From assembly GCA_004335635.1 (NCBI GenBank), contig QAXH01001425.1, positions 45,958 through 109,957 on the forward strand: 64,000 nucleotides of DNA, read 5' to 3'. The translations under genes were made by a program, and so were the position numbers. Shown here one piece after another: positions 22,847 through 61,588 of the stretch. This DNA comes from Chloromonas sp. AAM2 (lineage: Eukaryota > Chlorophyta > Chlorophyceae > Chlamydomonadales > Chlamydomonadaceae). The first letter of the stretch is position 1. Each line of letters starts with the position of its first letter. The notes below the pieces were generated by a model, which was given only the letters and a program-made list of their open reading frames with translations, did no database searches and was not told the DNA's origin.

Positions 22847-25775
22847 TCAGGACAATGCCATGTACCCCTGTCCGATGGTGATAGCCATGACAAGCTTCTC
22901 CTGCACCTCCTCCTTGCTCTTGTACCGCGGAAGGTCCAACTGCCTAAAGCACGTGTGTGCAGCTGGAAGCCTGGCAGTGGTGTCTGCGGCATCGTACAAG
23001 CGCTCCACTGCCACCATGTGGAAGGCAGGATCCATGGCTGCAAAGCCCTCGGCTGGCATGCCGTCGCTGCCGCTCCAGAACTGCAGCAGCTGCCTGCGGT
23101 GTGTGTCGTCCAGGCCCTCCACCACCTCCCAGAACCACTGGATCAGCTCCTCCTTGCCAGTGTAACCGTCCTCGTATCTGTGGCAAACACATGTGACATG
23201 TTCTTTAAAAGGATACAGTGATGTGTGGAGCGTGGTTTGACCTCGAAACAATCCTTCTTGGTTTCATTTGGGCTTTCCTACAGCTCGCCCGGTCCAGTAT
23301 GCCTCGGTTTGAACGCCATGCTCGCTATTGCGCTTTGCTTGAGCTGCAACACATTGCCTAAGACGCTTGCCGGGCAGTGGTGCGTCAGCAGGTGATCGTT
23401 GCAGATGCCTGCGGGTTTGCTCCTGCTCCAGTCTTGGCATGCCTGTGCCTTGCCACTCACTTGCAGTTCCTCTGCAGGTCCTGCACATCGATCCGCTGCT
23501 CGCCGCACACCAGCAGCTGCAGCTCCAGGCTGGTGAAGGAATACTTGTCAATGAGATCGCGTGGGATGATGGAGTGGAAGGCGTCGATGATGGCGGTCAT
23601 CTGCTGCTCAATGGTGCCTACCAACATCTTATGGGCCTTGAGTAGCACATACTCGCGCTTGTTGTGATTGGTCACCTGCGGGCAGAACGTGGAACAGGTT
23701 TTGATATGTGATACGTGGTGGGCTGAACTTGAACATATGATAGGTACGGCGGGTGATCGCGCTGCAAAGCTCCGAAGCAAAGAGCACTTCTGTTCTGTGA
23801 GCCACCCTAGTCTGGTGAACAAGCACGCTGTGTAGCACAAGCACAGATTCGTCTATCTGTTCAAGACGTACCTTGAGATGCGTGCCGCCTGGCTTGAGCG
23901 GTATGGACGCCACCTGTGGATCGTCTTGGCCGTCAAACGCGCCCAGCGGTGACTGTGCGGGCATTTGGCCTGCAGTAGGCGTGCCGGCGTCTTTTTCACC
24001 CACTACGGCATTACCAGCATGCATAGGGGATGAGGAAGAAGCGGCGCCAGGGGCGATGCCGCGGGGCGTGGATTGGCCGCCCGTGGCTGGGGTGGGGTTG
24101 GGTGGCAGCGGAGTGGGTGCAATGTAGCCGGTGCCGACACCAAAGCCTGCTGCGGAGACCTGCGTGGCACCAGAGATGATGCCGGCGATGAGCAAGGAAT
24201 GTCACTAGATGGAGCACGTGACTACTTGTGTAGCCTCAGCTGCGTCTCATGGTGCTCAGAGCACCCAGATAAAGCACACATACACGGTCAGCCTGCTTGT
24301 CAGCCTGGTCCCAGATGCACCTCTGGCCAGACAACACAGAAAGCCATGCCCTGCTTCTTGAGAGCATACATGCATGGGGCACATGGCAACCATCTCTCAT
24401 CAGTCAGCATTTGTTTCTGCAAATCAATCAGTGACCGCACCCTCAGAGCGGATACGCATCTGGCCATGCACGTGGCATTAACAGGCTTTGCCTCCCACCT
24501 GTGCAGGGGGTGCAAACTGCCCTTGGTGGAATTGCCATGCAAAGGTCTCAAAGATGAGCCCATCGATGTCCATGTCCAAAATTGACATGAGGCTGCGGAA
24601 CTCTGTAGGGTCGAGTAGCTGGAGGTCCATGAGGTTGAGGGGGATGCCCAGGAGTAGCTTCCACAGGGGCTCGCAGAAGGGAAGGTTCAGGACAATAGGG
24701 CCGAGTTCCTGTGGGCAAAACCAACAACAAAAAACTAGATAACTTACTGGGCAAAACGGCGAATGCTGGCGCAGACAACATGGCTGCAGGACTGGTTCCC
24801 CTTACCTTGCCACGTGCTGATGACTCGAGGATTGCCTTGGCCATAAACAAGCCAATGAAGTGGAACTTCTTGAGGTGTGTGGGTGCAGAGGACATGGGGT
24901 TGATGTACAGCTGGTTGCGCTGCAGCAAGGAAAGAACAGCACAGGGCCGTTGTTGTGCAAGTAGCTCAGTATGCACAACTCATCAGATGCATGGTACCGA
25001 ATGACATTGACCCGCAGTACCGACATTGACCCTCATCACAACATTAAAAGAAAGGCTTTTAGTCATTCCACCTGAGCTCCTGCCCTCCACACCCCGCAGC
25101 ACTGTCTTCATGCCCTTCGCTCACCTGCGGCCCCGCTGCCCAGAACAGCTCGGGCGACCCCCGTGAGATGGAGCTGGACAGGGAGGAGAACCACTCGCGC
25201 GTCACGCCCCCGCTGTCCATGCCCTGCTCGCCCAGGAACGACACCTGTAGACACACAAGCAAAAGCACACGCATCTTCAACTTGCACACCTGACACATCT
25301 GATGATCAACCAATCGTTTACCCACTCCTCCTGATGAGTCGTGAATACATGTACCTGACCAGGACCTGCCCAATTCTTAGCATGTTGATGCGTCACGTGT
25401 GGTACATGTGACATGTGTACAACTGCTAGATGAATAAAGCGTACTTAGTGTAACATGACAAACACTGTGCCCTGCACGTGGCTAGACGGGTTAGCTAAAC
25501 GATGTGAAACTACACAGTACCGGGTTGTCTCATGCACGCACCTTGAGTGGCTGGCGCCACACGGCGTGGCCCTTGCCCGCAAACTTGTCGATCGAGTCCT
25601 TGAAGCAGCGGCCCCGCCGCACGTCTATCTTGTGTATGGGCCCGTCCGAGGCCAGCTTGGCCACCTCTTCCAGGAAGAGCTTTCTGCGCATGCGGAAGTC
25701 CTGCCGCACCCAGCGCCGCGCCGCGCTGTCCGAGCTGTTGCGCGGTTGGAGTGGCAACATCAACAGCTCCTCAAC
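22847..25775 (-). other. HECT domain of the giant E3
   Basis: The last seven exons encode the HECT catalytic domain. Recognisable blocks are 'VSFLGEQGMDSGGVTREWF', 'FHFIGLFMAKAI', 'LGPIVLNLPFCEPLWKLLL', 'DMDIDGLIFETF', 'YTGKEELIQWFWEVVEG', 'LLQFWSGSDGMPAEGF' and 'LPAAHTCFRQLDLPRY'. The cysteine in 'HTCF' is the predicted ubiquitin-thioester residue, 34 positions from the C-terminus, as in other HECT ligases. One exon (23872-24159) inserts 96 residues rich in Pro, Gly, Thr and Ala between the N-lobe and the 'HNKREYVLLKAHKML' segment. Confidence 0.93.
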
Positions 25776-28700
25776 CTGCAGGCCATCAGGATCAGGCAAC
25801 CAGGGTTGAGCAATCAAGGTTAGGCAACCAAGATTAGGCCATCAGGATCACGAAACATTGGCCCACACCGCACCATGCGGAAAGACATCTAGCCGACGTC
25901 TACAAGCATGGTGAACAGGACTGTAAACAGGTTCCTATGCAAGGTGTGGGCTGCAGGAAGAATGAACTCAGCAGCCGCTGCTTTGCGATGCTCGTACCTG
26001 TTCCCACGACATTGCACTGGTGCCCAAGGCCCCCAGCCGGCCAGACAGCTCTTCCAGTGCAGGCAGCAATTCATTCTCCAGCGCCATCACCAGGCCAGGC
26101 TGGGTGCAGCGCAAGGCTAGCTGGGCAAACTCGACAGCCCAGGCAGTCATCTGCACGTAGGCACATAAAAGGTTGCGCTTCGGTTCACTAGCATGCCTCA
26201 AACTGACGGCTGACTGAGCCAGCAAGGACAGGCACATTGATGTCAAGTCAACACATGTGCATAGTCAGGAGCCCAGCCCTTGCTTACCACGTGCTGATGG
26301 ACCTTAAACAGAACAAATGATGTTAAATGAACTCGTTTGCAAACTGTGTGTCAACAGTGATGCCTGATAGTGCAGGCCAGCTCACACCTGTGTATTGACG
26401 GGCAGTCTGGGTATGAGGTTCATGAGTGTCCCTGTGTCCAGCGCCTCCTTGACAGCCGACAGGAGGCCCAGGGGGCCCTGCTCCGTCAGCAGCTGCAGCT
26501 GCACTATGCCGAACGCATAGAAGCTGGGCGTAGAGGCCTGCGGAGATACAAGTTTCAAAAGCTACTTGTCATGATGCTGTGCTTGACAAGTGGCCTTACA
26601 AGTATTCATGTGCCGTGACAGGGCTTGTGCTGGGAGCGGTTCCTCAGACTGACTGGGCTCAGTAGCTGTTGAATTGCTGCAAGTCTTTCGTTATTGGGCT
26701 GAATATGAAACCTTCCTCTCTCACACCCACATGCACTCAAACGACTCATTTCTGGTGTGTGTGTGGCGTCTTCTGTTTCAGGCATATGCAAAGGTAGCAG
26801 TACTGTTTTGAGCCCGTACCTCTGATAGCAGTGAGTGGGGGTCGATGTAAGCCATGTCGCAGTGCAAGGGTGCGAGCGTGGGGGGTGCGGTGCAGGGGTC
26901 CCCGAGCACCTGCTCCAGGTGGTGCAGCAGCGCAGGCAACACCGACACCTGCGATGGCCAGTGTGTTCAAGTTATGGCCAAGCGAGACAAGCTGCTTCAT
27001 CAGATGCGTGGTTGATGACGCCAGGTGTCATATGATTTGATTACGGTGATGATGTTGGCTGCTGCTGCGCGCCTGGATTGGTTGGTGGTACCGTGGGTTG
27101 AACCATGATAAGCCATATAACGTTGAGACAGAGGCAGAGAGACACAGAGACAGACAGACAGACACACACACACACACACACACACACACCTTGGTGCTCT
27201 GTGCATCCACGCACACATTAGCAGGGGTGACGATGCTGCGGAGGGCGTAGCCTGAGAGAACTGCGTCTGCTGAGGAGGACGGGGCTGTTTGGCTGCGGTT
27301 GCTGTCACGGCCGCCAGGGGTGTGGATGTCGTTCTCTGCGCGCTCCCAGGCAGCGGTGTGACGCCGCATGTCCTGTGAAGGCATGCAAGGTGCGGCCAGG
27401 CAAGGTCAGAAAGACGCAATTAGGCACATCACGAGTGAGACCGTGTAGAAATCGTATCATAAGACAGGGAGAGGCAGTCAAACACACAGTCGGGATGGTG
27501 ACCAGCACAGAGAGATGAACTGCTGTACTCTGCATGAACAGCAACCATTCGGTGCCCAGTGGTCAGCTGCTGGGTTAGCATCAACAACTGTTGGCCACTC
27601 TGACAATTGGCTTGCCCGTCCTATGGTGGTAGCATCAACTGCACTGCTGACACAGCAGCTGAACAGTGGGTATTGGAGTCTCAAATCCCATACCTGAAGA
27701 TAAGCAAGGGCCTTGCAGATGTCGGTGGCGACACGGCAGGCCTGCTGCCAACTCAGCAGGCCACGTTCCAGCCTGGAGTGCAGCGACTCCTCCCCAAAGC
27801 TCTCCTCCACCACCCACACAGTGTGCGGCTGCGCTTGAATCTGTGCCGCAGCCATCTGCTGTGTCCTGAATCCTGTGCTTGCTTCAGGCAGCTCGTAAGG
27901 TGCCGTTGCTGACCGTTCATGGGCCCACCGGGCGTCCGCTTGGCCCTTTTCGGCCGCCACGTCGTCTTCGCCGAATGCAAACAGGCTGCTGTCGGGGCCT
28001 GTTTGTAAAGTGTCATCTTCCAAGGCGGCCGCAGCATCGGAAGTTGCTGCAGCTGCGGCGGTTGGAAGCCAGGCGTTGTCGGGTAAGGAGCGGGCATAGG
28101 TGCAGCGGGAGAGAGGGGAGAGGGTGCCGGGGTTGGGTGCTGCTGCCATAGCGGAAGCTGTGCGTCGGAGGTCCGGCGAGGAGGCAGAAATGTGGCAGAG
28201 GGCGTTGGAGTTGGCTGGCTGGATGCAGACGCCTAGGACTGCGGCGATGTTGGGATGGGCGATGCAATAGCGGCTGTAGGCACGCTTCAGCTCAATGTAT
28301 GACACGCCATGGCTCACGCATGCCCGCCATACGCGGACCTTCATGCCCTTGAAATTGCCCTGGAACACATCGCGGTTCTCCACCTGCACACAGGCCAGAT
28401 CAACACGCACCAGCAGTGAGAGGGACTTAACTGCTCAGCTTTGTGGCTTTGAATCAACCACAACAAATCAAGGTGAAGTTGGTGTTGACTCGACCATTTA
28501 GGCTCGTGGTCGCTGCAAGTCAACAACGAAAAACCGCCCATTGGGCTCAAACGCAAACACAATGGAGAACATGCGTCCTGCCGTCCAGTTTGGTGCCTAG
28601 CGTGTGTCATGATTTTCACCCTGCCTCGTCCACACACCTGTGTAGGCTCAGTGCCCGAGATCATGGCCGCGATTTGCTCCGGCGTGAAGGTCTGGACGCT

Positions 28701-31700
28701 CATGGAGTCGATGATATGCTCGATCTCGTGGTGTGCCATGTGCACCTGGGGCCCTAGGAGGAAACGGGCAGGCAGCAAGGGGCTGCCAGAGGACCCGTCC
28801 TGGCCAGGCAAGGGTAGGCTGCCAGCGAGCAGGTCACATGGCTCGAACTGGTCCGCGTCCTCGTCATCCTGATCCATCTCGTCCTGAATGACAACAGGCA
28901 AAGCAGTGTGTAAACCTCAGGATGACTGTGAATATCATCCTGGAGATCCCATCTTATCCTGGATAGGGACAGCCATACGAGCGTGTTGGTCTCAGTTGAC
29001 CTGGGAAAGCTGGGCTGAGAACTGAGCTGAACGAAGGGCTGGCAAGAGCCCGCGCAGCAGGGAGGCACGCACGAATGATCCAGTACACAACTAATCATCA
29101 TGTCTACCTGCCCAAACCAAAGGGCGTCATTGGGTCTTGAATGCAATGCACGCTGCAGCATGGAGTAAACAGGCAGGAGTCATGTCCCGTACCTGGTCTT
29201 CAAAGACACTGCTCTGGTCCGGTTCAGACAGCAGCTCCCTGGCCCTGGCCTTTGCATTGGAGTGCACCTGGCCATCAGTGGTGTACATGGCCTTCCAGTC
29301 GCCCGAGTCATTGACGCCTGGCGACAGCATGGGGCTGATGGCGCCCAGGCTGTTGCGGGGCGAGGGTTTGAGGAGTGCATACCCCCGACGCTCCTTGTCC
29401 TTGACTGCTACACGCACATCGTCCGCTGCGGCACTGCCTCCGAGTGCAGGACTCCTGGATAGATATAAGCAAGGCAAGGCAAGCCATCGACCATACGAGG
29501 CTTACAGAGCTGGCTGTGTGCAGTCAGGTGCTCAACTTCCATGGTGCAAGCTCAGAAGTGCTGCTAGGCGACGTGACAGGTGTGCGCGACGTGGTGCCCA
29601 ACGAACAAACAAGTCCAGCTGTGCGCAAAAATCGGTGGAACAAAAACACATCCCTTGCAAGCTGGCACCAACAGACAAATGACGTACACTCACTCATGTC
29701 AACGCCGTTGGAACATGTGCAACAAATAACGGACAGAAGCGGAGTGCACAACTGGTGCTCGGCACGTGGAACAGAATTGGAACCAGACAGTTTGCATTCG
29801 TACACACGTCATCGCCCCTGCTCACCTGCATGTCTGCGGCTCTGGTGCGCTGGCTGCAGGGGTGCTGCGGGCGGGTGAGCGGTTGTACTGGCTGTGCAGG
29901 TCCGCACGCTGCAGCTGAGACTCAAGCTCTGCAGGAGAGCAGAAACACGTGCAAACAAAACGGTTGTCGGCCAAGTCGCTGGCATGAACGGTTGGCATGC
30001 CTGTAGCAACCACGCCATGTCCGTCACAAGACTAACTCGAGCCCAACACTGAGGCATGAGGCCTGCTGCATCCCACACACCACCCTCACACTGCACTAAT
30101 CAGTTCCCTCAAAATCACCACCTCGCCGGGACCATATCGTACCTGCGATTCTCTGCATAGCCGCCTGCACACGCTGCTGCATCTCCACATATTCAAAGTT
30201 CCTGAGGCTGGACACGTCGTGCTTGGCCTGGTCGTGTCCCCGCTTGCGCTCCCGCTCCTTGATGCGCAGGATTGCTTCCTGCACCTCCCAGGGGGTAGGG
30301 TCATCAAGACGGCCAAAGTCGCCCTGCATCTGTTGGATGACCTCCCGCTGGAAGTCATGCGGCTCCACACCACCGCGTGTGATCAACACAGCCTCCTGCA
30401 GATGACAAGGTCGTTGTCCGCGAGTCAGTGGTGGTTACAGATGACACCTTGCTGGTAGATGCTGGGTTTGTGGTGAAAGGCAAGAACGTGCATGCTGCTG
30501 TTGAATGCTGTGTAAACCATGCATCAATGAAACTCCATGCAAATGATACATTGGGCAATCATGTGTAGCACCTTGTTGTGAGGCACATCCAACCATGCAA
30601 TACCTACGTTGAATCTTTTCAGCTGTTGTTCTGTTGTTAATTGCAGAGCACTGGCGCAGAACACGTCGTCATACCAACGGCAACCCAGTGCCTGCCCTTG
30701 TCCTGCTCTCACCTCCTCAATAAGGCACACTAGCCTGCCACAGGGCTTGAGCAGCGACAGCAGGGTCGGCAGTTCCTCCTCCGTCACCGACACGTCACAA
30801 AACAGCGCGTCGTATGTAAGCCCGCTGGTGCACTCGGGGATCAGCACGTTGGCTAGAATCAGCTCAACCTTGTTCAGACCAGCGTTGGGGAGGCCGAGGA
30901 TCTGAACAGTGCACGTGGTAGAACAAGGGTGTGTGTGCGTGTGTGTTGTGTGTGCATGAGTGTACGGTCGAGTGCTCAGGGGCTGCCTGGTGTGTTGTGG
31001 TGGGCTTGCTTGGCCTGGTGTGGTTGATTGCTTGGCCCTGCCCACTGTGGCGAGTTGCATTCCCAACAACTGCACTCAAGAGGACCATGCAAGTGACACT
31101 GCCAGCACACCTGGTGCGCAGGTCTGACTGGCATCCACTAGAGCACGCACCAAGTACGCACCAGTTACCAGGCAGTACAAGGTACCAGGAACACACTAGC
31201 AGCTTGATTGTGGCAGTGCTCACCTCGCATCCAGCAGGCATTGGGTTTGCTGCCACCCTGTCTTTAAGAGCTCGCATGTTGGCGCTGGCGGCCTCCAGCC
31301 GGGACGAAATGCACTCCACGCCCTGCACAACAGGGCACATCCTCTTTGCTCAGCGCTCATGTTGGGGTCAAGTAACCTTGGTCCTATCACTACATGCTGC
31401 ATCCAACACCTGACTATTACAACATCAACGCACAGCAGTGATGCCATGTATCACAACAACAAGCGACTGGTCGTTGCGCAGTTGCCTTGCTTAGACGCGC
31501 TGCATTGTAGCACCTTCCAGACATGCCTGGCCCTGCCCTAACAGCACCATCACAGCCCCACATTCCTGGCATGCCCTGTCTCAATGCACCACTTCCTTGT
31601 CATACCGTTCCGGCTGTCATGCCTTTCCATTGCACTGCCCTGCTGTTCCGTAGACGCCTTGGTAGAACGTGTGCATGCCCTGCCCACTGGTGTGCCCTGC

Positions 31701-34700
31701 ATTATCCGCCCATAGAGCCCCAGCACATCCTAGCGCACCTGCACAAGCGCGGCTGGCTGGTCCGCCAGTAGGCATGCCGCCAGGGCGGTCACATACGCCG
31801 TTCCGCAGCCGATGTCCAGGAAAGATCTGGCTGAAGTGCCCACGCCCAGTTTGTCAAGCGCCAGGGCCACAAAGGAGGGCGCTGGCAGGGTCATGGTGCT
31901 GCCGTCTGTCAGCCGGACGGTCACCTTGTGGTCGCGGAACGCCTCCCGCTGGCGATCTCGGGGCACAAAGAGCTCCCTGTGCAGCATTGCAAATGTAGGT
32001 GCCAAGCGTCATGTATGCCTATGAACACGTATGTCTATGAACATGGATGGTGACATGGATGCCGTACCAGTTGAAGGGAGACTAGCAAAGTGCTTGGAAA
32101 CCCATGCAGAGCAAACAATCGCATACATGAACACGCCAAGTGGTAACAGATGTGGCAAGCACGCTCAAAAGATCCGCAGACTAAACTAATTCATCGGATT
32201 GCAGCCCTTGCTGTAGCCCAGTGGCAGCCTTCCAACCTTGACACCAGTGCCCCTTCCCCACTGACCTTGGCACGAGCAGCATAGCTGCCTCCATGCGTCC
32301 ACTGAGTGCAACCCCCTTGCCCTTGAGGATATTGATGAGCTCCTCATTGGTGTGCTCACTGGTGCCTATGGGCCCAGGTCCAAGGGAGGCCTTCTGACGG
32401 CTGCTGGTTAAAGTCACGGCTGCATGTAAAGGACCTTGCACGTCGGTGATGATACCCAGGCTGCGACCCGCATGGGCGAATTTGAGAGTCTTCTCTTTGA
32501 GGTCCAGGGTCATTGTGATCTGGAAGGCAAGTGACGGAATGGCACACTTGGGCGAACACGGTGCGCTGCTACTATGTGCGTGTGTTGTTATGCTTCAGGA
32601 TGCACTGTAATCAACACAGTAAACACCTGCAAGGGGTGAGTGCATGTATGCCCTGCTAGGTGGGATTTGTCCCTAAATTTGTCCCTGAAGAGATGGGACG
32701 CAGCACACACCTGCACCTGAGGTGAACAGCTTAACATCTACCGATAAGCAACGTGAAGGGGCGTGCAGGCAGCAACCGTATTCAAAAAATGTCGAGCCGC
32801 CCCTGGTTCCAATCAAGCCATAACCTACCTCGCACTTGCCATCCACAAAGAAGAAGACGGGCTGTGCCTTGCCTTTGTGCTTGGCAGTCGAGCCGCGCAC
32901 GGGCTTGCTGACCTCCTTCCAGTTGCCCAGGTTGCCCACGTGAAAGTACTTGCCATTCACGTAGAAGTAACCAAAATAATCAAGGCCTGCAAGGGCAACA
33001 AAATCAAAACCGTGTGGAGAAAGCCATGCAAAAACCACAGGTAGAGCTTGCCACAGACGTTCATGCACATAAGCTACGCCAGGGTCTGCCATTCACGAGC
33101 CCAAATCCAGGGTTGATCCTGTTTAAGTGTCGCTTACCAATGCCGCAGCCATCTTCTCCTAGTGATTTGTTGAGGTCCATGGTCGGTGGTGCCACGCCAA
33201 CTAGGAAGTTGGAAACGGAGGTGGTCACGCCCTGCTCTAGGCGCACAACCCAGGAATGGGTCTCGATCTGCAAGCACGTGAGCAAACTTGCTCCAGCCCG
33301 TCATACCCTGTGCTTTGATCGGTAGCCAAACCGACATATGCACAAAGTCAAGTATTATTATCAAAACTGCGATGTTCCAGAGAAGGCTGAGTATCACAAC
33401 ACATGAAGTGCCGACGTCCACCCCATGACATCCCAGAGCAGGCGAGGACGGCCTCAAAACCGTTCGCAAGGTACATGTAATGCGCACCTTGGTGTACTCC
33501 CTTAGCCCCAGCACTGTGCCTTGGCCGAAGGTTTCCTCGCCACCCAGCGCCCTCAGCTGTGCACACGCCCCATCCGCTGCCAGTGCCACCAGCCTGCACG
33601 CCTTGGATGGGTTCCAGCGCAGGGACTGCACCAGGTCCACGAACATGCTGCTGCTGTGCAGCGTGATGCTGTCCATGATGTTGTCCAGGGAGATGTACGG
33701 CCACACCTCCTCTGCAATCGCAAACACAGCAAGCAAGGCAGTGGTCAGAGTGTGTGTGCGTGCCGCCTCATCTTCCTACGCCGGGCAACTACCTACGGTT
33801 TATGGCTTGAAAGGTTGTGTCGTTTGCCACCTTGCCACCAATGCAGAGCACTTCTGGTGCGGGCACAACACAGCCAGTCAGGGCAAAGTTTTGTCACCAC
33901 TGCAAACAAACCCGTACACCTGTTACAATTTGAGTCCCAGTGCATCGTTTTGCCACCTTGCCATCAATGCAAACAGTGCGGGCATGATGGAGCATTTCTG
34001 GGTGCAAGTGATGGACGTTGCCCTCGTGCCTCACCTGGCAGATCGTCCCCAGCCGCCTGCATGACGCCATTCTTGAGGAACTGCATGTGCCTGGCCTCCA
34101 TGTCCAGCTGCACTGTCACCAGATCCCCCTCGGCATAGGGCTCAGCACACCGCGTGATCAGCTTGCCTGCTACACGAATAGTGCCGTTGCTGAGGTAGTA
34201 GGTGCGGTGCTTCATCTCCTGCGGGTCCGCGTTTAAGTCATGGCCACCAACCGTCACGCCTGCACAACAAAGGCGTGTCAATTTAAGGCAGGAAGCAAGA
34301 ACCGCCACTCAAGTCTGCATGCCACTCACGCTGCAGTTTAACAACAGATAGATTTGAGGCATCGGGAGGCAGAAGCTAGCGTTTATAGTTGCCACCATGC
34401 CTGCCAGCTACTTACAGCCAGCCAGTCCTTACTTGACCCGCCTCAACCCAAGAGCAAAAAGCCAGCTTGCTGCACTTGAGCTGTCACTTACCAATGAACA
34501 GATTGCTATCCTCTACATGGTTGATGTAGACGTTCCAGGAATGCTGTCCCGAGGCCAGGCAGAGGGTGCCCAGCACTGTGGCGTAGTCACCCCCCTCGTT
34601 GGCCATCTTGGTCACAGTCAAGCCATCGAGGACGTTCAGGTCCTTGCCGGCACGGGCCTCATCCCACCTGCAACGCAGTTGATGAAGACAGGCTGTGATG

Positions 34701-37700
34701 GCATGGCACAAGAATGGGCACACAGACTATGCACGTCAACAACCCTGGCAAACCATGTTTGTGCTCACGCACACCCCACCCCACACCCACGCACACACGC
34801 GCCCCCCACCCCGTCACACCCACATCGAACAACGGTCAATGTCAACATAGTAACTGAGTATTACTTGGAGAAGCGTTGCTTCTTGGCACACACGACTGTT
34901 TGTGGCACAAACCCCAGCACCAGTTCAAACGCTCAAGCCTTATGATGCGTGCTATGGCCCACAGAAGGCTGTCACATCCACTGACTCCCCGGCTTGAGGC
35001 ATGCCACACATGAGGCATGGTGCAGCAGCTGGACGGCTATCCCATGCACTCGAACCTGCCAACTGTCCGCGTCGCACTCACCTGAGCTCTCCCACGTACT
35101 CCCCTGTGTTGAGCACTGTGGGTCTGTTCTGGATGGTGATCTTGGACTCCTCGCTGGCCAAGGTGGCAGCGGGCACCAGGGGCCCGTGCACGCCTGTGAA
35201 CGCCTCGCCAAGAGGAGTGCCGTCCCTGAACAACCAACAGTCAACATCACAGCCAGTGTCACACGTATGGCTTCTGGTGCAGTGGTCAAGCTGAGTTGTC
35301 CTGACAACACCAACACCAACACCTACACGTATCGCAAGCAGTGGTGGCCTCTCAGTTCTTATCTGTCCACTGGTGTACGCCATGGGTATGTGCCAATCCG
35401 AACAGTGCTGCACACTCATAATGTGAGACTGTGCAGAGCTGCATGCACCAGTGCCGTGTGAGGCAGGTTCAGCGCAAATCCAGGTGCAGAGAGATTCTTG
35501 AAAGTCAGCTACCTGCTGAAGCGGATTGTACCACGGGACAGATCCACGAAGACTGTGAGCACGTCACCGCTCTTGAACGGAGCCGAGTACTCCTCTTCCC
35601 GCCCCTCGCTGCGCTTGTCACCGTCGCTGTGCAGGGCCCAGCCGCAGCCCACATCGCCCACTGTGCAAAAGGGGCCAATGCTGGCCGGAGCCACGCCCAC
35701 CCACACGCCGTCAGGGCCAATGGTATCCAAGATCACGTGGAACTCATGACACCCAGAACCTGAGGGACAGGTCGGCATAACAAAGCGGTCAGCCACCAAA
35801 TACCTCGGGGATAGAGGAGCAGCCAAGGGCTACAACAACACCAGCAACCCAGCCTGAAATGTTACTAGTGCGTCAAGCTAGCCTGCACCCAGACATGATA
35901 AATGTACAAAGCAGCAGCTGCAGCCGAGGCCGGCCGCTGATAGGCCATGCTTACCCTTGTACAGAACGGTCCCATGAACAGTTGATGGATGGTTGGATGC
36001 CGTCTTAGTGGCAGTCAAACAGTTCGATGACAACTCAATGTCGGTGGCATGGTTCTTCGTGTCCCATTCCTGCAAAAACAGCACAAGCTGGTACCATCAG
36101 GTGGCTGTACCATCAGGTGGCTGGTACAAGAGGCAGCTGTCATCAAATAACTTGAGCATGCCAGCATTGAGGTACACGCAACAGCCACAATAACTAGACC
36201 AGACAAACAAGCGCGCACTCTGTTATGATAGCAAGCACACATACATATGAGCATACAAACTGCCACAACTAACAGGAAGGAACTAGTGATCATTTGATGG
36301 ACGAACCAATGTAGGACTGCTTGACGCTAGAGATGCTCACCACGTCAGCCAGCTGGCGGGGTATGCGGTCAAGCAGCAGTGAGTAACTGCCCAGTAGTGT
36401 GATCTGGTCACCCTCACTGTCACATGAGACAAAGGGGAAGAGCCGCCCACGGATGCCGCGCGCACGCCCCTGCTCGACACCTGCACCAACATACAAGACC
36501 CAGAAACAGTGAGTTTAGTGCACAGTACTCACACTTGCGGTGCCTTCTGACTCGTTTAAACCTTGAAGACTCGTGCCCTGAGTTGAGACCCTGTCCACCG
36601 ATACAGACACAAATACAGAGGCGGTGGCAGCTTCATCAGGATGCAAGCTCGTGTCTGAATATCTGACTAATACCCAGCTACCCTCCTCCAAACCGGGGTC
36701 AAACCATTGCAGAAGCCCACATAAAGCTCTACAAGCCTAGCACAACGTACCGTTTCTGAAGAAGGCGATCTCTCCCTGGTCTGCATCCAGCACCAACCCC
36801 ACAGTGTCGCCCTTTGTGAAGTTCGCTGCGGTGGTGAGAACCCTCCGCCCGCCCACTCGGATCACGCCATTACTCAGGTAGTAGGTGCGGTCACGTAAGT
36901 CCTGCAACAGTGGCCGTACACAGAAGCACAGCATTTAGTCATCAAGCTATCCACGCAACATGTCCACAACTCATGCAATCTGGCTCAAAGGTGCAGCACA
37001 TCATGCCAATGTGCCCTACTCCAGACTACCAACTAAGGCTACCTGACACTCATGCAAACTGTTGCTTCTTTGCTCATGCAATCAGGCCCATGCTGTGCCC
37101 CAACCCTTCTGGCTCAAAACTCCACCACACCATGCCCAATGTGCACCATTCTTGTGGTTGACTTCTGTAGCGGGCTTTTGCATGACTTCTGTAGACGTAC
37201 CTGAGGGTCAGAATCCAAGGGCATGCATCCGCGGCACACGCCGATGAAGATACTGTCAGGCTCTGACAGGTTGTTGATCTTTATTAGCCACAAGTGGACA
37301 CCTGACGTGAAACCTGGAAACAATTGACAGCGTATCAGGCAAGATTTCTGTCATAAGTGGCAAGGGCTCACTCTGGCTGGTTGACTTGACGCAGGTTGAC
37401 TGAGCCAGATTCCAGCTGACTACAGCAAAATACCAAGTTATGGCTCGTCTGCATAGCTGGTGTGCACCTGCATTGCTCCTTGCCAAGTACGGCCATTGTC
37501 TAGTTGCAGTACCGTGATTTAAACCATGAAAAGCCATGTAATGATGATGAAGTATGGCCAGTAGCTAGCCTGTTCTTTGCCCCAACCAGTTTGCCCCACC
37601 CAGTACCCCAACCCTTGACCCCCATGTTCAGATGTTCCATCGCTCGCCTTGGTCAGCCAGGACTGTTGAGTAGTCTCCATAGACCTCTGACACCTTAGAC

Positions 37701-40700
37701 ACCACTGGCCCCGCCAGCTGCAGGTCAGCGCTGCATGCCTCCAGGGTCCAGCTCAGGTCCAACTGACGCAGCTTGGTGATGTTCACCAGGCCGGCAGCAC
37801 AGTGGACGTTCACGCCCTGTAAACCATTGAAAATTAAATGCACGCTTGCTCAACTTGCAACTGAACAAAGAAGAGTTCAGACAACCAAGTGCTCGGTCTG
37901 CAATCGGGGGCCGGTCACATGTCGCAAATCGGGACCCCAATCTGGAGATCTACATTTGGATTGCGGTCACACGACAAATTTAGGTCCCAATTTGGATTAT
38001 AATCTGGGTCGGCGATTGGAGGGGGCGCTTAATTTGCGTTCCAATTTGGGTATGGCCCACACCAAGGACATGCCCACTTGACTTTGGCCACGTGCCTTCA
38101 AATCGATCAAGAAGGTGCCTGGCACATCCAAAACCACTGAACACGGCCAACTACACACGTAGATACGCCACTACTGCTGCCAAGGCTTCTAGCAAGAGAG
38201 CTCCTAGCTGATGGGTGGCTGGAGGCTGGTATGCCGCGTACTTGCAAGCGCTTCAGATGCCGCTCTTGATCGCAAATCAGCCTGCTCAGATTATTGTGCG
38301 ACCCTGCACGTGTGACCGCCGGCAAATTCGAGTCCAGATTTGGGCCTCGTCTACCGCCTCTCAACCCCCACTGGGAGCCAGATTGGCAACCAGAATTGGG
38401 ATGCAATTTTTGCGAGTGACCGCCCCTTGAATGTGCGGTACACAATTTATAAGTACTCAAGAAAGGGCCCGAGCCAGCTTCCACAACACAGACACTTGAC
38501 AACAACAGAGCTTGACCAAGGCCGGAAACAGAGTAACTCGATGGATTTTCATGTCCGCCCTCCGCCTGCATGTCACTTGCCCTGTTTGCTGGCCCCACCT
38601 GCCATTTCACATCATCGCTTTTCAACAAAACTCTGATCCCAACACTGCTGCTGTCTGATGGGAAATGATTCCACCTGTTGTCAGTAATGCTTCACTTTCC
38701 CTGTGTTCACTTCACCTAAGTCAGAAGGCCTGAGCGTGAAACACACTACACTCGAGCCCAAAACAGCGTCGTTCCTTGAATTGTCTTGTCCACCTGTTGC
38801 CACTGACTACCAATGGCCTGCTGTCCTCACCTGCGTTAGCGCCACCACCGGACACACCGTCCCTGTGACGCCCTGGAAGGCAGTGCCTATGAGGTGTCCG
38901 TTTCTAAAGAAACGGACATAGCCGTTAGTCAGATCCAGGTCCACCGTCACGAAGCAGTGGCTGGTGGTGGCCTCGGCGTGGTGCACCAGGCCGTCGCGTG
39001 CGGGGGGCACCACCACATGGGTGGAGCCGATGGGTGCAGCTCCTGTACACGTTACAAAATGATCAGGCGTTGGCCAAAAACAAGTGTTGCCTTGACTGTT
39101 GAATGGAGTCTCGACCAATGTCTAAGATATCGGTGTGCGAGGAGTGTCAGGTAATGACGAGGTCCTGTACACGTGACAATATGATCAAGGGTCGATCATA
39201 ATGAAAAACCATGCATGGGCATGATGACGGTGATGGCAATGCTTAAAGTGATGCCTTGAGCAAGTTTTCGACTGCCATGTAATGATGATAATGCTGGAGA
39301 GTGCGTTACTACAACAGGCCGGGTGTATCATGCTGGACTGTATGACTGGCGCTGACATGAACCAAGCCTGCAATTGTGTAAGCCCAACAATGTGTTGGCC
39401 GGTTTTATGCAAGAACCACCACGTTCCACCTGCTTCCTGCTGCCTCTCTGCAATGATGCGTTGCTGCTTCCAGATCCGACCAGTACCAGTATGCTCAACA
39501 ACACACCTGGCAGACGAATCCAGGCTCCCCATTGTGCTGGGTGGGCCTTGGCTGCGGCAGCTGAAGAAGTGCCTCCGCCGTTGCTGCTGGCACGCGACCT
39601 GCCTGCTGCCCCTGCATCTGCACCGCTGTCGTACCCTGCTGCACCAACTGCGGCTGCGGAGGAACCGGCTGCAGCTGGGGCAGCAGACGCTGCAATCTGC
39701 ACAAAACCGGACACATGCACGGATTAGCGAAGTCCAATGAGTGGAACTTCTGGCACAAAGCATTTTCAAGATAAAACGCTGTGCAGTGCACAGCACCCTG
39801 TCCTGCTCCCTGCACTGCGGCTGCATATCCTCCTACACCTCTGATTCAAGACTTGCGCCGAATTTAATTGCTTCCCCATCAACACTGGTTGTACCCGCTG
39901 AAACCTACCGCGTCTCACCTCTGGTCAACATAAGTAAGTTGATGATAACAGTAAACATAACATAGATATAAAAAACCATAAAACCATACCTGCAGAGCAT
40001 GTGCATTGCTTGTCCCAGCAATAGACCTGAGCCGCCCATGTACATTGGACAGCGCACTGCCGCCGCCAGAGGCGAGCATGTGGCTGCCGCTGCACTGCGC
40101 CACGCCCACATAGATGTGTGTGGGCAGTGCGCCCGTGTTGTCCAGCTGCACAGTCCAGCGGTGCCGGCCAGAGGAGAAGGTGGCACTGCCTAGGAATTCG
40201 GCCTGGGCTCCCAGGTGCGTCTGGGCATGTGCGACTGAAGTGGGTGAAGAAGCGTACTTGATGCTGGTGTCAAGCTCCCCAAGGACTATGTCAGGCATTG
40301 AGTTCCCAAGACTGCATGATGATACAGCAGAAACAAGGACACATTTGGGCAAGACATGAAATTCAGTGCCAGGCAGCCGACAGCATAGACTAAAGGCCAG
40401 GGGGACTGCGAAAAATGACCTGCAACATGCTGTGTGCATCATGTAGTTGAGGCAGTCATGCATGTCCTGTTCGATCAGACAATGGGTGTTCAACTTGCCA
40501 GCCTGACAGCGGCTTTGGTTTCTTCCCCAAGCACAGCGTATTCCAAGTGTTAACGCTTCAGCTTGCCAGCCTGGCTTGTTTTCCTAGACACATACCTGTG
40601 GTACCATGTGAAGAGCGGGCTGCGTGTGGTGGCCTCGTACAGTGAAGCGCCCATGCCCGGTGCCAGGGTGATGAAGGGGTACATCTGCAGCATGGAAATG

Positions 40701-42862
40701 GAGCTGCACGGCAGCAGCTGCTGCAGCAGCACCTCGGAGTTGAGCTTCAGGGTAGCGATGATCACTGGTTGGCCCCCCTCCCGTGGAGCCAGGTCGATGG
40801 ATAACACGTCCTGTGCACGGCACACAGCAGGTTGCTGGGTTTCATCACTCAAGTGCCACCTGTGAGTGAGCTGTTCCTTTGTGTAGCTTTGTGGTGATCT
40901 TGATACTGACGCAATGCAAGCAACCTAATGCCCCCTGGGTAATTCAGGTTGGCATGTGGCAGGTTGGCAGACATGTTCAGCCTGTTGTTGCCCAGCCTTC
41001 ATGAGTGTGTCTACGTTTGATCTTTCGACGTTTGCGAGCCACAACACCTACATGCTGACTCACCTCCGCACCCAGGTGGACAGCGGACGCAGTACCACAG
41101 ATGATGTACAGCGGCTTGCGGGATGGGCTGTCAATTGGGCAGCTGATGACAGGGCTGCTAATTGATGCGCCAGATGAAACAGATGGCACGCCTGCTGCAT
41201 CGCAAAGACAAGGGTAAGCAGACGTGTGGGCACCAAAACGTGCTTTGCAGCCTGCCCACGGCCCTCTATTCTGCATCGTTTTGCAGATTAGCATAACATA
41301 TGGCTGCACTGCAGGGTCACTGCAGGGCCATGCAATGCCCTGACTTCACAGTCGACTTCAGCATCATTGAATCAATCAGCGCCCAGTCTAGAAAACCCAC
41401 TGACCTGCTGCTGAAGCCCCTGTTGTGACTGCAGGCTGTGCTGGGTTGGTAACGAGTGCTGGGCAGGGCCGGGTGGAGGCCAGGCCCCAGGAGATGGACT
41501 GCTGACCCTCTGCCACCCTGGCTGCCACCCCATGAGTGCCTTGTGGCTCCTCCAGCCGGAACTTGATGGTGACACCCCCACAGTAAGCCACGAACTTCAT
41601 TACCTGTGTGACAAAGATTAAACCAAGCAGTTCTACTATGCATGCCATGCACCAGAACAGCACGCCAGGTCAATGCATCAACAATAATCAGCACGCGCTT
41701 TTGGTTACGAGCTATCATCGCACACCTATGAGACATAACGACCAAGCAATGTCAATTTCCAGGCATGCTGGCACGTGAATATCACAACTAGTGTCTCGTA
41801 AACACCCTGATCGTGACTCGCACCTCTAAATCCAGAATGCCATAGCTGTCCCGTGCTGCCATGGGCTGCCTTGAGGGCTGTGAGATGCGCTGACACTCGA
41901 GCTGCAACGCCTGGGAGGAGAGTGCCTTGGACCACCCAGGAATCAAGCTGGCTGCCTTGTGCGTTGCCCGGGAGGGCGTGGCGGAATGGGCAACAGCTGG
42001 CTGTGCAGCCTGCTGGGGCACTCCTTGCACCGGCACCTGCATGGCATACACATGGCTCTGTCATCCAACCACGTGCACAAGATCAGGAGGTCTTGCCATG
42101 CAGTTATAGAGCTTGTTAACAAACACACAGTGGAGCTATGAGCCTGCACAAGGGTCAAATGAGCCTCTACAGTCGAAGTCATTTAATTGGTAGATACCAT
42201 GTGGCGTCTTACATGTTCGGCATAGGCTTACAAGCTCGAAGTTGTGGCGAAGCTGCACTGGGCTGTCCACCCTTTGGGCAGTTGAAACAAACGGATGCTG
42301 CGCAGTTGTGCCGTGTAATGCAGGCGTGCATGCATACTTCAGCTACCTGTTGTGGTGCGTTGCGTTGTGCGCCAGCACCTAGGGCGGCAGCAGCTGCTGT
42401 GAGCAGCGGTGCTGCTGCGGCTCCTGACTGGCTGACCCTGCCGGCTGGCAAGCCAAGACTGATGGCAGCATTTGCCTGCACTGGCCAGCTGGAAGGTACG
42501 GAGTTACCTGCAGAAGAACAATAGCACAAGGTCTTGCTTGGTTTTGCTGATACCCTCGATGCCTGCAGGACAAGCAGACTTGCATGCCCTCCTCATTGAG
42601 GCCTTGCCAGCTGCTGCACACACACCTGAGGCGTCCATGCTGCCTGCACCACGAGGGTCGTCACGCCTGGCACCAACCCCGCCTCCCGGCGTGGATGGCC
42701 CTTGGCCCATACCGTGCGCCTGCAAGTCGCCGAATGCAAAGGTTCCCCGTTAGAGTCCACTGACCAGCTGCGTTCCGCGAAGCCAAACATACCCGCAGCT
42801 CCATGTCAGGGAAGTGGACAAATGGCTTCAAGTAGTTCAGTAGAATAACATACAAGAGAAGC
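22847..42862 (-). CDS. Giant SPRYx5 / PIMT-like / pseudokinase / HECT E3 ubiquitin ligase, at least 42 exons, 5' end unresolved
   Basis: Predicted HECT-type ubiquitin ligase. Exons on the minus strand, 5' to 3': 42793-42862, 42626-42719, 42347-42507, 41824-42036, 41405-41603, 41064-41194, 40596-40810, 39990-40311, 39507-39696, 38831-39042, 37648-37816, 37201-37313, 36751-36901, 36341-36480, 35955-36069, 35513-35759, 35082-35225, 34492-34667, 34035-34259, 33488-33711, 33138-33267, 32829-32986, 32266-32519, 31739-31976, 31224-31322, 30713-30901, 30143-30395, 29826-29928, 29193-29454, 28638-28883, 27694-28383, 27190-27372, 26820-26948, 26388-26537, 25998-26150, 25542-25775, 25125-25244, 24806-24919, 24499-24708, 23872-24159, 23461-23675, 22847-23177. 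Every junction agrees in phase, giving about 2,750 residues. Order: unassigned N-terminus, five SPRY-like repeats, PIMT-like domain, pseudokinase, HECT. One donor (37647) must be GC. The first listed exon starts mid-codon, so further 5' exons exist, perhaps within 42900-43170. Splitting into two genes cannot be fully excluded without transcripts. Confidence 0.85.
27092..27126 (+). repeat. Copy of the dispersed 'ttgaacc...aagccat' repeat in a HECT intron
   Basis: ccgtgggttgaaccatgata with the following 'agccatataacg' matches 21190-21225 and 37510-37545. It sits in the intron between exons 27190-27372 and 26820-26948. Confidence 0.55.
27124..27189 (+). repeat. GACA/CA microsatellite beginning at a HECT splice donor
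   Basis: Gag-acag units grade into about 13 CA dinucleotides that end at 27189. On the coding (minus) strand the intron therefore begins AAG|GTGTGTGT..., so the donor GT is the first unit of the tract. Confidence 0.8.
30143..32519 (-). other. PIMT-like (protein-isoaspartate methyltransferase) domain of the giant E3
   Basis: Five exons encode a PCMT-family Rossmann methyltransferase. The start 'HTNEELINILKGKGVALSGR' with 'MEAAMLLVPRELFVPRD' matches the PIMT N-terminal helices. Then come 'DGSTMTLPAPSFVALALDKL' (equivalent to the GxTISAPHMHA region), AdoMet motif I 'SFLDIGCGTAYVTALAACL', post-I 'GVECISSRLEAASANMRAL' and motif II/III 'YDALFCDVSV' with 'LKPCGRLVCLIEE'. Free PIMT repairs isoaspartyl damage; whether this embedded copy is active cannot be told from sequence. 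Exon 32266-32519 encodes both the end of SPRY 5 and the start of this domain. Confidence 0.85.
37505..37550 (+). repeat. Copy of the dispersed 'ttgaacc...aagccat' repeat in a HECT intron
   Basis: gttgcagtaccgtgatttaa, then 'accatgaaaagccatgtaatgatgatga', matches the right end of repeat copy B (21187-21228). It is intronic with respect to the HECT gene. Confidence 0.6.
37907..38435. mobile_element. Putative TIR element in the longest HECT intron
   Basis: The left end 'gggggccggtcacatgtcgc' (then aaatcgggaccccaatctgg) is approximately matched inverted at the right end, '...ccagaattgggatgcaatttttgcgagtgaccgcccc'. Inner relatives occur at about 37963-38000 (gcggtcacacgacaaattta) and about 38307-38346 (cgtgtgaccgccggcaaatt). 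The interior has no ORF of note. The nested subterminal repeats suggest a MITE-like element. It lies between HECT exons 38831-39042 and 37648-37816 in an intron of about 1 kb. Confidence 0.45.
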
Positions 42863-46330: not shown

Positions 46331-49300
46331 CTACAGCTCGTACAGCTTCTCGTATTTAGTCTTCAAGTAACTCTGCAGTGCAGATTCACAGCAAAGGCAG
46401 GTCGCGAAATGATGAAAGGGACGTGCGAGGCTTGCTTTTGCAATTACGCGTACAGCGTGCGAACCCTTGGCTAAAAGCAGAGGTAAGGAAGAGAAAACGT
46501 TCGATTTGCTTTTGTAGGGCATAGTATGAGCATTGTGTGAGCCAGCATGTCAACTCTTCCTGCTGTAACAGCCTTATTGGTTACACGTAAATTCTTGAAT
46601 TTAACACGGCCTGACACCACAGCACCTAACACACTCAAAGTGCTCATAATGTATAGAGAGAAGCGGGTCAGTCTCATGATGATGCACTGTCCATACTGGG
46701 ACAGAGTGAGGCCACACATGTTGTTGTCCATTCCACATACTGTTGACTTGCCAGAGCACAGTCTCATCACACACAGACACAGGGGACTGGGAATCATGCA
46801 TTATGCATCAGAATCCAACAGCCTTGTATTCAATTTCATCCACAATGCCGCATGCCCTGCTGAGCCCCCTTATCCACCCACCAAGAATATGGCGGGCTTG
46901 AGTGGGCTTCCAGTGACTGCCTTCATGAGCTCGTCTCCATCCGGATGCAAAGACCCCAGCTTGTGAATGCGCTCGTTCAGCCACGCCTGAAGCCACACAG
47001 GACACGAGTGCACACGCTGGGGCATGAGAGTTGTGCCCTGCTCTGGTCAGCCTAAGGTTGCCGGCACTGGGTGAGTCCAACAAGGCCAAGCTGCAGCGGT
47101 TGAGAAGCACCGAGCAGGCCCTGCGTACCCATACACAAGGTGTGTGCAATACGAGAGGTGGGTTCGCAGAATCAGCACAGTTGCCTTATTTGCATGCAAA
47201 AGGCAGGTCTGACCGTACTGGACTGCTTCACAGATGCACCTGCTGCCCGCTACATGCTTTGCCTGGCTCCTGATCCGTCTGCACATACAAGAGGCCTGCT
47301 CTATCAAACGCAGCGAACAGCTCCTCCTTCCAGTACCTGCCTACCCCAGATAACACTAGCCTAGCTTTGCCCTAGGCCCGGGATAGATGACCCCAGATAA
47401 CACTAGCCAATTTGGAGGTGAACTCACCTGACTGGTGTGAATGACCGCGGTCGGATCACTGGCAATGGCCCTTCTAACGCGGTTAACCTAGCCATCTCTG
47501 GTCTCCATCTGTGTGTCAAGCTTGTTAACAAGACACTCAACCCGTACACCAGATGACCCTCCAGAACCACACCTTGAGTGCCTTGAATTCTCCCTTGGCC
47601 ACGTCCTCCTCCAGTGTGGGCAGGTGCACCAGCGCGCACTCGTAGATCTGAGGGCGGTGCAGCCAGGCCACAACACGCAGTACACACGGGTCGTGAGTTG
47701 ATAATCGATATGGCTGGCAAGAAAGACACCCTAGCTGCAATCCTTTCAGCCTTAGAGTGATAGCTCAGGCCTTCATTGCCAGAGTTGGTCTGCGCAGACC
47801 GTTGATTGTTCAAATCACATGGTGTTCAACTTACCGCCCCTGGGCGACCCCTGGTCGGTGTTCCACGGGCCGTCACCAAATGCAAAAAATAAATGGCCTC
47901 GACTGAGGCGTACAGATTCAAAATAGTAGTCCGGATTTCTGCCCCTGCTTACCTGTGTGGCGTACATGGCTCCCAGCGTGTAGCACTGCGAGCACACCAC
48001 ACGCACAAAGGCAGCAAACTTCAGGTGTCGTTGTACATGCAACAAGACCGATTACAGACCGACTGCCGAGTGCGTCCTGTGCACCAGTAGGTGGCCAATC
48101 GGCGTGTGGCAACGGTTGTATGATCGCTGCTGCAGGAGTGCAGGTTTCGCATCGAGTAGGTGGACCGAGCAGTGCAAATGGACGGGCATGCATGCAAGTC
48201 AACACGGCACTCAGGGGAAAGGTTGGGAAGTCAACATCAGGCCTGCACTCGAGTACCCTATCCTTGATGCATGCCTTACCGGGAAGTATCCGAAGAGGCC
48301 TGCAGACCAGTGCACATCCTGCACCACGGAGCACACAGCAATGCAAACGGCAATCGTTGACACTTGACGTGATGCTATCACGGTGCTCAACGGCTGGCTT
48401 TCGCAGAACATGCCTTGGCATTGGCCATAGTCTCTCAGCCCAACATCTCTGAATGCGTGCTGGCTACCGGAGTGCTACTGCATTGTTTTGTCAGCGGCCC
48501 CAAGAAGCTCAGGTTTGCAAAGCGAGAGGACAGCAAACTGTGGCCGTCCACACACTGCAGCCTGTGTGCGTACCAAGTAGACCTTGGTGTCAGGGGAAAA
48601 AAAGGAAGAAATACTGATTAAGTCGCTAGCCAGCTGGCTGGACCCCACTGCCTGACACTGGCTGTAGCCCACGTGCTTTGACGAGCGCCACTGACCTGCA
48701 GGCACCCCTGCGCGTCTGAGGGGGGCTCGGCGCCCAGGTACTCCTTCATCTTTGCGTTCCACAGCCGGGGCACATCCTCCACCTGAACACACATGAGAGG
48801 ACAGGATGCATGCGTCCCCGCCCTGCCCCACCCGCCTGGTCAACATGATCCTGCCTGATGGGAAAATCCGGCATCAAAGTGCATAAATCCAGATCTACTG
48901 ACGTCAAAATACTGTCAAAGCTGTCAAAGCGTGGCTTTGGATAGAAGGCTTGTTGGCTGGACTATACCCCAAGCTGGTGCCGCATGACTCGACAGCCCAC
49001 ACATGTCACATTGCCAGTTGACGTGATGCACCAGAGTCGATTGACTGCTCACCTTGACGGTTCCCTCCATCAGTCCCCGTTCGATCTCATAGCGCAGGAT
49101 GATGTGCATGGGGTAGGTCACCTGGAGCAAACAGCCAGCATGGGAGACGCTGTAACAGCTAACTTCACCGCAAGTATCGTTAGTTGTCCATTGTTCATGT
49201 ATGAACCACAGTCAAGTGGCATGAGCCTCCGGACACAATAACGCATGCTCAGGTAGATGGCTTCAGGCAAACTTAGACCACAGTAGACAACACATGTCTT

Positions 49301-57354: not shown

Positions 57355-57395
<41 letters not shown>

Positions 57396-57645
57396 GTTGG
57401 CAAGTGGAGCTTGAGTTCACACCATGAGAACCAGAGTACGCTCCAGATGATGGGTGTCGCCCGCTCCAGTTGTGTGTCGTTGTTGCTACTGTTTTGGGTT
57501 GCTATTGGCTCGGTGGTGCTCCAGGCTTTTGCAAGGTTCAGGCAGCCTCTTAAATATGCCCAAAACCACGAGCGTTTTATTACTGCAACACAACCAGTCC
57601 AGGCGCTTGGGCAGCAGCCTGGAAGTACAACCAAGAAGGTGTGTG

Positions 57646-57676
<31 letters not shown>

Positions 57677-61550: not shown

Positions 61551-61588
<38 letters not shown>

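What the first reader, a model, noticed from the sequence alone, without database searches (positions are those of the whole stretch)
22847..42862. Single giant protein joining SPRY repeats, a PIMT-like methyltransferase, a pseudokinase and a HECT ubiquitin ligase
Forty-two exons chain in perfect phase into about 2,750 codons with the order SPRY x5, PCMT/PIMT-like, TKL-type pseudokinase, HECT. HECT ligases with SPRY modules (for example HERC1) are known, but I know of none that also carry a PIMT domain and a kinase-like domain. A plausible reading is a quality-control ligase that recognises damaged (isoaspartyl) proteins and ubiquitylates them, with SPRY repeats as substrate docks and the pseudokinase as regulator. 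The domain content is seen; the function is inference.
Basis: partly seen in the sequence, partly recalled or inferred. Interest (0 to 1): 0.93.

Follow-up and report, generated by a model that had tools for sequence, protein, structure and literature searches.

The report
SPRY–PCMT–pseudokinase–HECT giant ubiquitin ligase
A green alga encodes one very large ubiquitin-tagging enzyme that carries, in a single chain, a set of docking domains, a look-alike of a protein-repair enzyme and a dead kinase; the same chain is found in related algae, and the repair-like part seems to have become a sensor or receptor rather than a repair enzyme.

Summary

The isoaspartyl-repair reading is weakened. The PIMT catalytic Ser is Pro, and motif II Asp-Gly is Asn-Val, in the window protein and 13 of 13 relatives. 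The best-scoring solved relative is human PCMTD1, a CUL5-ligase receptor without detected isoaspartyl methyltransferase activity. I read it as a HECT ligase with SPRY docks, a non-repairing SAM-binding receptor or sensor and a pseudokinase scaffold, possibly myristoylated. The searches named found no printed description. New variant of a known kind.

The parts
22847..42710 (-). Whole coding region, 42 exons, 2,721 aa, ATG 42710-42708, stop 22849-22847
   Evidence: ab initio; corrected against relatives; controls
42626..42710 (-). Exon 1, start MGQGPSTP; MGQ(G/V)(P/S)S matches the N-myristoylation pattern MGxxxS/T (pattern recalled)
   Evidence: such a sequence in 6 of 13 relatives (P0002, P0004, P0005, P0006, P0008, P0009; in P0005, P0006 and P0009 it is an internal Met of the recorded protein); P0001 starts MGPNYG, the 6 others start later in the protein
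40596..42036 (-). Exons 4-7, conserved region before SPRY1 (aa about 78-329), no Pfam family; SPRY-like by eye only
   Evidence: no match for aa 120-325 of the window protein or for the like piece of P0004
37648..40311 (-). Exons 8-11, SPRY 1 (aa about 379-580)
   Evidence: E 5.1e-8
36341..37313 (-). Exons 12-14, SPRY 2 (aa about 634-740)
   Evidence: E 3.4e-9; acceptor corrected by 12 nt
35082..35759 (-). Exons 16-17, SPRY 3 (aa about 805-913)
   Evidence: E 2.2e-13
33488..34667 (-). Exons 18-20, SPRY 4 (aa about 973-1072)
   Evidence: E 2.5e-5, 24.8 bits, just under the cut-off of 26.3
32266..33711 (-). Exons 20-23, SPRY 5 (segment aa 1085-1290, matched at about 1220-1275)
   Evidence: E 0.0032, second half of the profile only; under the cut-off
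30143..32519 (-). Exons 23-27, PCMT-fold domain (aa about 1292-1494) and the conserved helix PTPWEVQEAI-RIK-RE
   Evidence: (3e-14, positions shifted from the uncorrected model)
25998..28383 (-). Exons 31-35, RLK/Pelle-type pseudokinase (aa about 1784-2206) with a long low-complexity insert in exon 31
22847..25244 (-). Exons 37-42, HECT domain (aa about 2319-2717) with a low-complexity insert in exon 40
   Evidence: 1.6e-70, 3.2e-71
22949..22951 (-). Codon of the catalytic Cys2688 (LPAAHTCFRQLDLP)
   Evidence: (residue number), sequence; motif in 10 of 13 relatives

Best explanation
It is a giant HECT-type ubiquitin ligase of the algal class Chlorophyceae. Shown: one gene model, one conserved chain of five SPRY segments, a PCMT-fold domain, an RLK/Pelle-type pseudokinase and a HECT domain with its catalytic Cys. 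Inferred: the HECT domain transfers ubiquitin; the SPRY array and the PCMT-fold domain choose the substrate; the PCMT-fold domain still binds S-adenosylmethionine but no longer methylates isoaspartate, so it works like the PCMTD1/2 receptors of animal CUL5 ligases (a SAM-liganded receptor or SAM-level sensor) and not as a repair enzyme; the pseudokinase beside HECT is a scaffold or allosteric switch; and the N-terminus is myristoylated and holds the ligase at a membrane. Chances by step: one gene and chain 0.97; active ligase 0.9; no isoaspartyl methyltransferase activity 0.8; PCMT-fold domain as substrate receptor or sensor 0.6; membrane anchoring 0.5.
For: Gene and chain: and the relatives (HECT in 13 of 13, SPRY in 12 of 13, PCMT in 12 of 13 by precomputed Pfam; 7 of 13 with all ten markers). 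P0002 and P0007: 7,248 and 7,146 coding bases on contigs of 8,436 and 8,465 bases. PCMT domain: best solved relative by profile is PCMTD1, 1.8e-15, ahead of all listed PIMT chains, best 9.9e-13; algal rows and PCMTD1 fall on one side of a 99/99 split from 10 PIMT rows. Pro for the catalytic Ser, and Asn-Val for the Asp-Gly of motif II, in the window and 13 of 13 relatives. The SAM loop LD-(V/I)-GCG is kept in 11 of 11 algal rows and found in 12 of 13 relatives. The same genome keeps two PIMT copies with ATISAPHMHA. PCMTD1 binds AdoMet and CUL5/ELOB/ELOC without detected isoaspartyl methyltransferase activity (PMC10798966 and PMC11514484, passages). Pseudokinase.
Confidence: 0.6

Rival explanations
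1. Damage-quality-control ligase: the PCMT domain reads (without methylating) isoaspartyl or aged proteins, and HECT ubiquitylates them, while the free PIMTs repair.
For: PIMT-family fold; Thr of the T-x-S-x-P motif kept in 7 of 11 algal rows; two free PIMT copies in the genome could do the repair.
Against: The Ser that bonds isoAsp is Pro in the window and 13 of 13 relatives; PCMTD1 keeps it, and even there no isoaspartyl methyltransferase activity was found (passages).
Confidence: 0.2
2. Writer plus ligase: the PCMT domain chemically makes a degron (such as the C-terminal cyclic imide that human PCMT1 makes for cereblon) and HECT acts on the marked protein.
For: PCMT1 promotes the C-terminal imide read by CRBN (PMC11974815, abstract and passages); the SAM loop is kept.
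Against: PCMT1 S60A does not do it, and the algal domain has Pro at the equivalent place.
Confidence: 0.07
3. The PCMT fold and the pseudokinase are structural spacers without ligand or client role, as the inactive PIMT of Paracoccus complex I; only the SPRY array selects substrates.
For: PMC11522691 passages: a PIMT with Thr, Ser and motif II changed that serves as a subunit of complex I and is concluded to have lost its catalytic ability.
Against: The SAM loop LD-(V/I)-GCG is kept in 11 of 11 algal rows. The domain (55-65% identity of the window protein to relatives) is better conserved than the kinase region (31-60%) and the linker (34-54%), though less than SPRY 2-5 and HECT.
Confidence: 0.15
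4. Artefact: neighbouring genes joined by the gene model.
For: Joining neighbouring genes is a common error of gene prediction (recalled), and the first settings of my finder did join the whole window; the finder was seeded from this gene.
Against: Same order in the 13 relatives found and two long coding sequences on short contigs; forced breaks lose in 10 of 10 places.
Confidence: 0.02

Closest known systems
PCMTD1/PCMTD2 of animals (CUL5-RING ligase receptors)
   Same: PCMT-fold domain tied to a ubiquitin ligase; best-scoring solved sequence; shared YD-x-(I/L)-(Y/F)C and, in the HMMER alignment, Asn in motif II; isoaspartyl methyltransferase activity not detected for PCMTD1 (passages)
   Different: PCMTD proteins are separate receptors with a SOCS box (passages); here the domain sits inside a HECT ligase, with Pro for the Ser that PCMTD1 keeps
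PCMT1/PIMT protein-repair methyltransferase
   Different: Catalytic Ser lost, motif II Asp-Gly lost; an inactive PIMT subunit is known in Paracoccus complex I (PMC11522691, passages)
HECT ligases with SPRY domains, such as HERC1 (recalled)
   Same: HECT plus SPRY in a very large protein
   Different: No PCMT or kinase-like domain known to me in them; HERC1 has RCC1-like domains (recalled, not tested)
Plant and algal HECT (UPL) subfamilies I-VI
   Same: Green-lineage HECT ligases
   Different: Extra domains named in the part of Marin 2013 that I read are armadillo, IQ, UBA, ubiquitin, RCC1 and a zinc finger; SPRY, PCMT, kinase and methyltransferase are not in its main text (PMC3712016, term search and one section part)
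Plant RLK/Pelle pseudokinases (RKS1, BIR2)
   Same: Kinase fold without catalytic residues (BIR2; RKS1 best profile hit; RKS1 as a pseudokinase is recalled)
   Different: Here a module of a HECT ligase, with a long insert in the N-lobe

Membership tests
HECT ubiquitin ligase | Complete HECT domain at the C-terminus with catalytic Cys | tested here: met
   1.6e-70, profile 4-303 of 306; AHTCFRQLDLP, Cys2688
HECT ubiquitin ligase | Ubiquitin thioester and transfer | not testable with these tools
   Needs biochemistry
PIMT (protein-L-isoaspartate O-methyltransferase) | PIMT fold and SAM motif I | tested here: met
   (fold from the model of a relative)
PIMT (protein-L-isoaspartate O-methyltransferase) | Catalytic Ser of T-x-S-x-P | tested here: not met
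   Pro in the window and 13 of 13 relatives; Ser in 8 of 10 PIMT rows
PCMTD1/2 | Closer to PCMTD1 than to PIMT | tested here: inconclusive
   Sequence profile ranks PCMTD1 first; fold tied; tree consistent but weak
PCMTD1/2 | SOCS box and CUL5 binding | not tested
   The protein has its own HECT domain; no SOCS box family is among the 6 families of the Pfam scan
SPRY-domain proteins | Pfam SPRY | tested here: met
   4.6e-39 for the whole protein; 3 of 5 segments over the cut-off on their own, 2 under it
RLK/Pelle (TKL) kinase fold | Bilobal kinase fold | tested here: met
Active protein kinase | Beta-3 Lys, HRD Asp, DFG | tested here: not met
   Trp for Lys, and no HRD or DFG, in 9 of 9 rows
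N-myristoylated proteins | MGxxxS/T at the true start | tested here: inconclusive
   Pattern in the window and in 6 of 13 relatives; modification not tested

The most novel reading that the evidence does not exclude
The PCMT fold has been taken into the ubiquitin system more than once as a SAM-gated substrate receptor: in animals as PCMTD1/2 on CUL5, and in Chlorophyceae built straight into a membrane-anchored HECT ligase together with a pseudokinase switch, so that ubiquitylation of chosen proteins follows the cell's methyl-donor state or a modified-residue signal.
Probability: 0.25. Interest if true: 0.86.

Novelty: new variant of a known kind. Interest (0 to 1): 0.68.

Why it matters
What PCMTD proteins do is barely known. 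A natural, conserved fusion of a PCMT-fold domain to a catalytic ligase domain is circumstantial evidence that this fold serves substrate choice in ubiquitylation, and it can be tested in Chlamydomonas, which is tractable. It also shows a green-lineage HECT architecture that the survey of plant HECT ligases I looked at does not describe.

Tried and rejected
First gene-finder settings chained the whole window into one false 497-exon gene; intron costs were raised and the model retrained.

A false first exon (MELR) and a 2-codon exon of the ab initio chain were dropped, and the start and one acceptor moved, after comparison with relatives.

A sixth SPRY before SPRY1 was tested and not found.

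Short PCMT hits (36 proteins): of P0014-P0043 I read P0014, P0016, P0020, P0023 and P0028; they hold family sequence and look like exon pieces of the same kind of gene called on other contigs (inference). I counted none of P0014-P0043 as separate genes. P0044-P0049 look PIMT-like or more distant; five of these six (not P0048) served as outgroup rows.

The tree used 11 algal rows of 14 (window and 13 relatives): P0006, P0008 and P0013 were left out (near-copy of P0005, gap over the SAM loop, and late find). The Ser and motif II counts were then repeated on all 14.

Relatives outside Chlorophyceae were not found in two full-database searches, but those score only about 8,000 candidates that share exact words, so absence is not shown. 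P0002, P0007, P0008, P0010, P0011 and P0013 carry no species name. I checked the class of three of the six named genera; the other three are recalled.

Fold search could not separate PIMT from PCMTD1. A plasmid search with a piece of the gene found nothing. Repeats were looked for in two introns; two short pairs in one, not followed.

Paper searches on this architecture that listed no description of it: (listings only). PCMTD1 and PIMT searches. Papers were seen as passages (PMC11514484, PMC10798966, PMC7859441, PMC11522691, PMC10112892), as abstract and passages (PMC11974815), or as abstract, passages and one part of a section (PMC3712016).

Full report
WHAT IS THERE. The window is part of a eukaryotic assembly of 74.4 Mb in 2,324 contigs, on contig 383. 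Stop-to-stop frames on the minus strand between 22.8 and 43 kb are fragmentary, so I wrote a small spliced gene finder with coding statistics and splice-site matrices. It was seeded with 16 peptides from this region and retrained on about 260 kb of the genome. Its matrices came out as ordinary splice sites (AG|GTRAGT, TGCAG|G). It gave one minus-strand gene, 42804–22847, 44 exons. The region score is 768.8, against 18.4 for the plus strand and at most 0.6 for 20 shuffles; a forced gene break loses 13–36 log units at each of 10 places tried. Because the seeds came from this gene, the independent evidence is the comparison with relatives.

RELATIVES. A search of 5.8 billion proteins with residues 900–1620 of the model returned 12 proteins, and a second search with three of them added a thirteenth. 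They are 47–72% identical over the parts compared. Precomputed Pfam labels list HECT in 13 of 13, SPRY in 12 of 13 and PCMT in 12 of 13. Of ten sequence markers along the chain, 7 of 13 relatives show all; the other six lack one to three, some because the record is truncated or skips a stretch. Named sources are Haematococcus lacustris, Chlamydomonas incerta, Volvox africanus, Tetradesmus obliquus, Scenedesmus sp. and Dunaliella salina; I checked the class Chlorophyceae for three of them. Two unnamed relatives, P0002 and P0007, have 7,248 and 7,146 coding bases on contigs of 8,436 and 8,465 bases, so introns and ends together can take at most 1,188 and 1,319 bases. P0002 runs from MGQGPSTP to the shared C-terminal MALS. 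The window gene has 41 introns with a median of 283 bases, so these contigs look like assembled mRNA. That is an inference, since I could not see the source type. By domain, identity of the window protein to the relatives is 72–80% in SPRY 2–5, 55–65% in PCMT, 31–60% in the kinase region and 67–79% in HECT.

CORRECTED MODEL. Relatives that reach the N-terminus start or continue at MGQGPST-like sequences, have GFISG-like residues where the model had skipped four codons, and lack a 2-codon exon. Corrected, the gene has 42 exons and 2,721 aa, 42710–22847, with one GC–AG intron after exon 11.

DOMAINS. Pfam: SPRY 4.6e-39, PCMT 3e-14, HECT 1.6e-70. Taken one at a time, SPRY segments 1–3 are over the cut-off, segment 4 is just under it and segment 5 is weak. 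The segment before SPRY1 matches nothing. The HECT catalytic Cys is residue 2688.

CATALYTIC RESIDUES. PIMTs hold isoaspartate with the Thr and Ser of T-x-S-x-P; the Ser-to-Ala change abolishes activity in the Drosophila enzyme, and Asp-Gly of motif II binds SAM (PMC11522691, passages). Human PCMT1 S60A is called catalytically inactive (PMC11974815, passages). In the algal protein the Ser is Pro, and motif II reads Asn-Val, in the window and in 13 of 13 relatives. Ser stands in 8 of 10 PIMT rows and in PCMTD1; the Thr is kept in 7 of 11 algal rows; the SAM loop LD-(V/I)-GCG is kept in 11 of 11. PCMTD1 has Asn-Cys in motif II in the HMMER alignment, though MAFFT places that Asn elsewhere. The same genome has two PIMT copies on contig 679 that read ATISAPHMHA. 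So the alga keeps ordinary PIMTs, and the ligase carries a different, probably non-repairing copy of the fold. PCMTD1 binds AdoMet and CUL5/ELOB/ELOC but showed no isoaspartyl methyltransferase activity, and PCMTD2 acts as a CUL5 receptor in T cells (PMC10798966 passages; PMC11514484 passages).

HOW IT PROBABLY WORKS. HECT does the chemistry. The SPRY array and the PCMT-fold domain pick the client, the latter as a SAM-liganded receptor or SAM sensor. The pseudokinase, directly before HECT, is a scaffold or switch. The conserved MGQGPS start would allow N-myristoylation and membrane tethering (pattern recalled; present in the window and 6 of 13 relatives). Everything in this paragraph is inference.

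AGAINST THIS READING. PCMTD1 keeps the Ser that the algae lost. The PCMTD link rests on sequence ranking with few rows. A damage-reading role is not excluded, since reading needs no catalysis. A third link of this fold to ubiquitin, PCMT1 promoting the cyclic-imide degron for cereblon (PMC11974815), offers a writer model, but it needs the lost Ser.

WHAT IS KNOWN. Plant and algal HECT genes were surveyed by Marin 2013 (PMC3712016). The words SPRY, PCMT, kinase and methyltransferase do not occur in its main text, and its table gives Chlamydomonas reinhardtii nine HECT genes. My paper searches on this architecture listed no description; they cover open-licence PubMed Central papers only. Where the search listing shows a source's name for a relative, it is 'hypothetical protein', 'HECT-type E3 ubiquitin transfe...', 'E3 ubiquitin-protein ligase TOM1-like', a bare gene number or 'protein-L-isoaspartate O-methyltransferase'.

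VERDICT. New variant of a known kind, interest 0.68.

Noticed in passing
window 55148-63672, + strand: Gene model with NFACT_N and NFACT-R_1 domains (2.1e-25 and 4e-27), the Rqc2/NEMF family of ribosome-associated quality control (function recalled); one gene lies between it and the ligase. The model runs close to the contig end and its last residues look wrong.
   Followed up: partly
window 46331-54539, - strand: M32 carboxypeptidase Taq gene model, 21 exons (1.5e-164).
   Followed up: partly
window 2015-3525, + strand: CAF1 ribonuclease (deadenylase family) gene model, 3 exons (1.4e-22).
   Followed up: partly
window 7007-12558, + strand: 1,131-aa gene model with a GHSMGAG motif, lipase-like by eye only; not searched.
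   Followed up: no
window 40596-42036, - strand (aa about 78-329): Conserved region before SPRY1 that matches no Pfam family; perhaps a sixth, diverged SPRY-like unit.
   Followed up: partly
window 30143-30395, - strand: Segment PTPWEVQEAI-RIK-RE right after the PCMT fold, nearly invariant in the rows compared and modelled as the start of one long helix; the only Pfam match there is at chance level (PYC_OADA, E 0.15).
   Followed up: partly
L029 and L030 (contig 679 of the genome, 15889-21289): Two similar PIMT copies in opposite directions a few kb apart, with intact ATISAPHMHA motif; only exon pieces were read.
   Followed up: partly
window 37647 (donor of intron 11): GC-AG intron in an otherwise GT-AG gene.
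   Followed up: no
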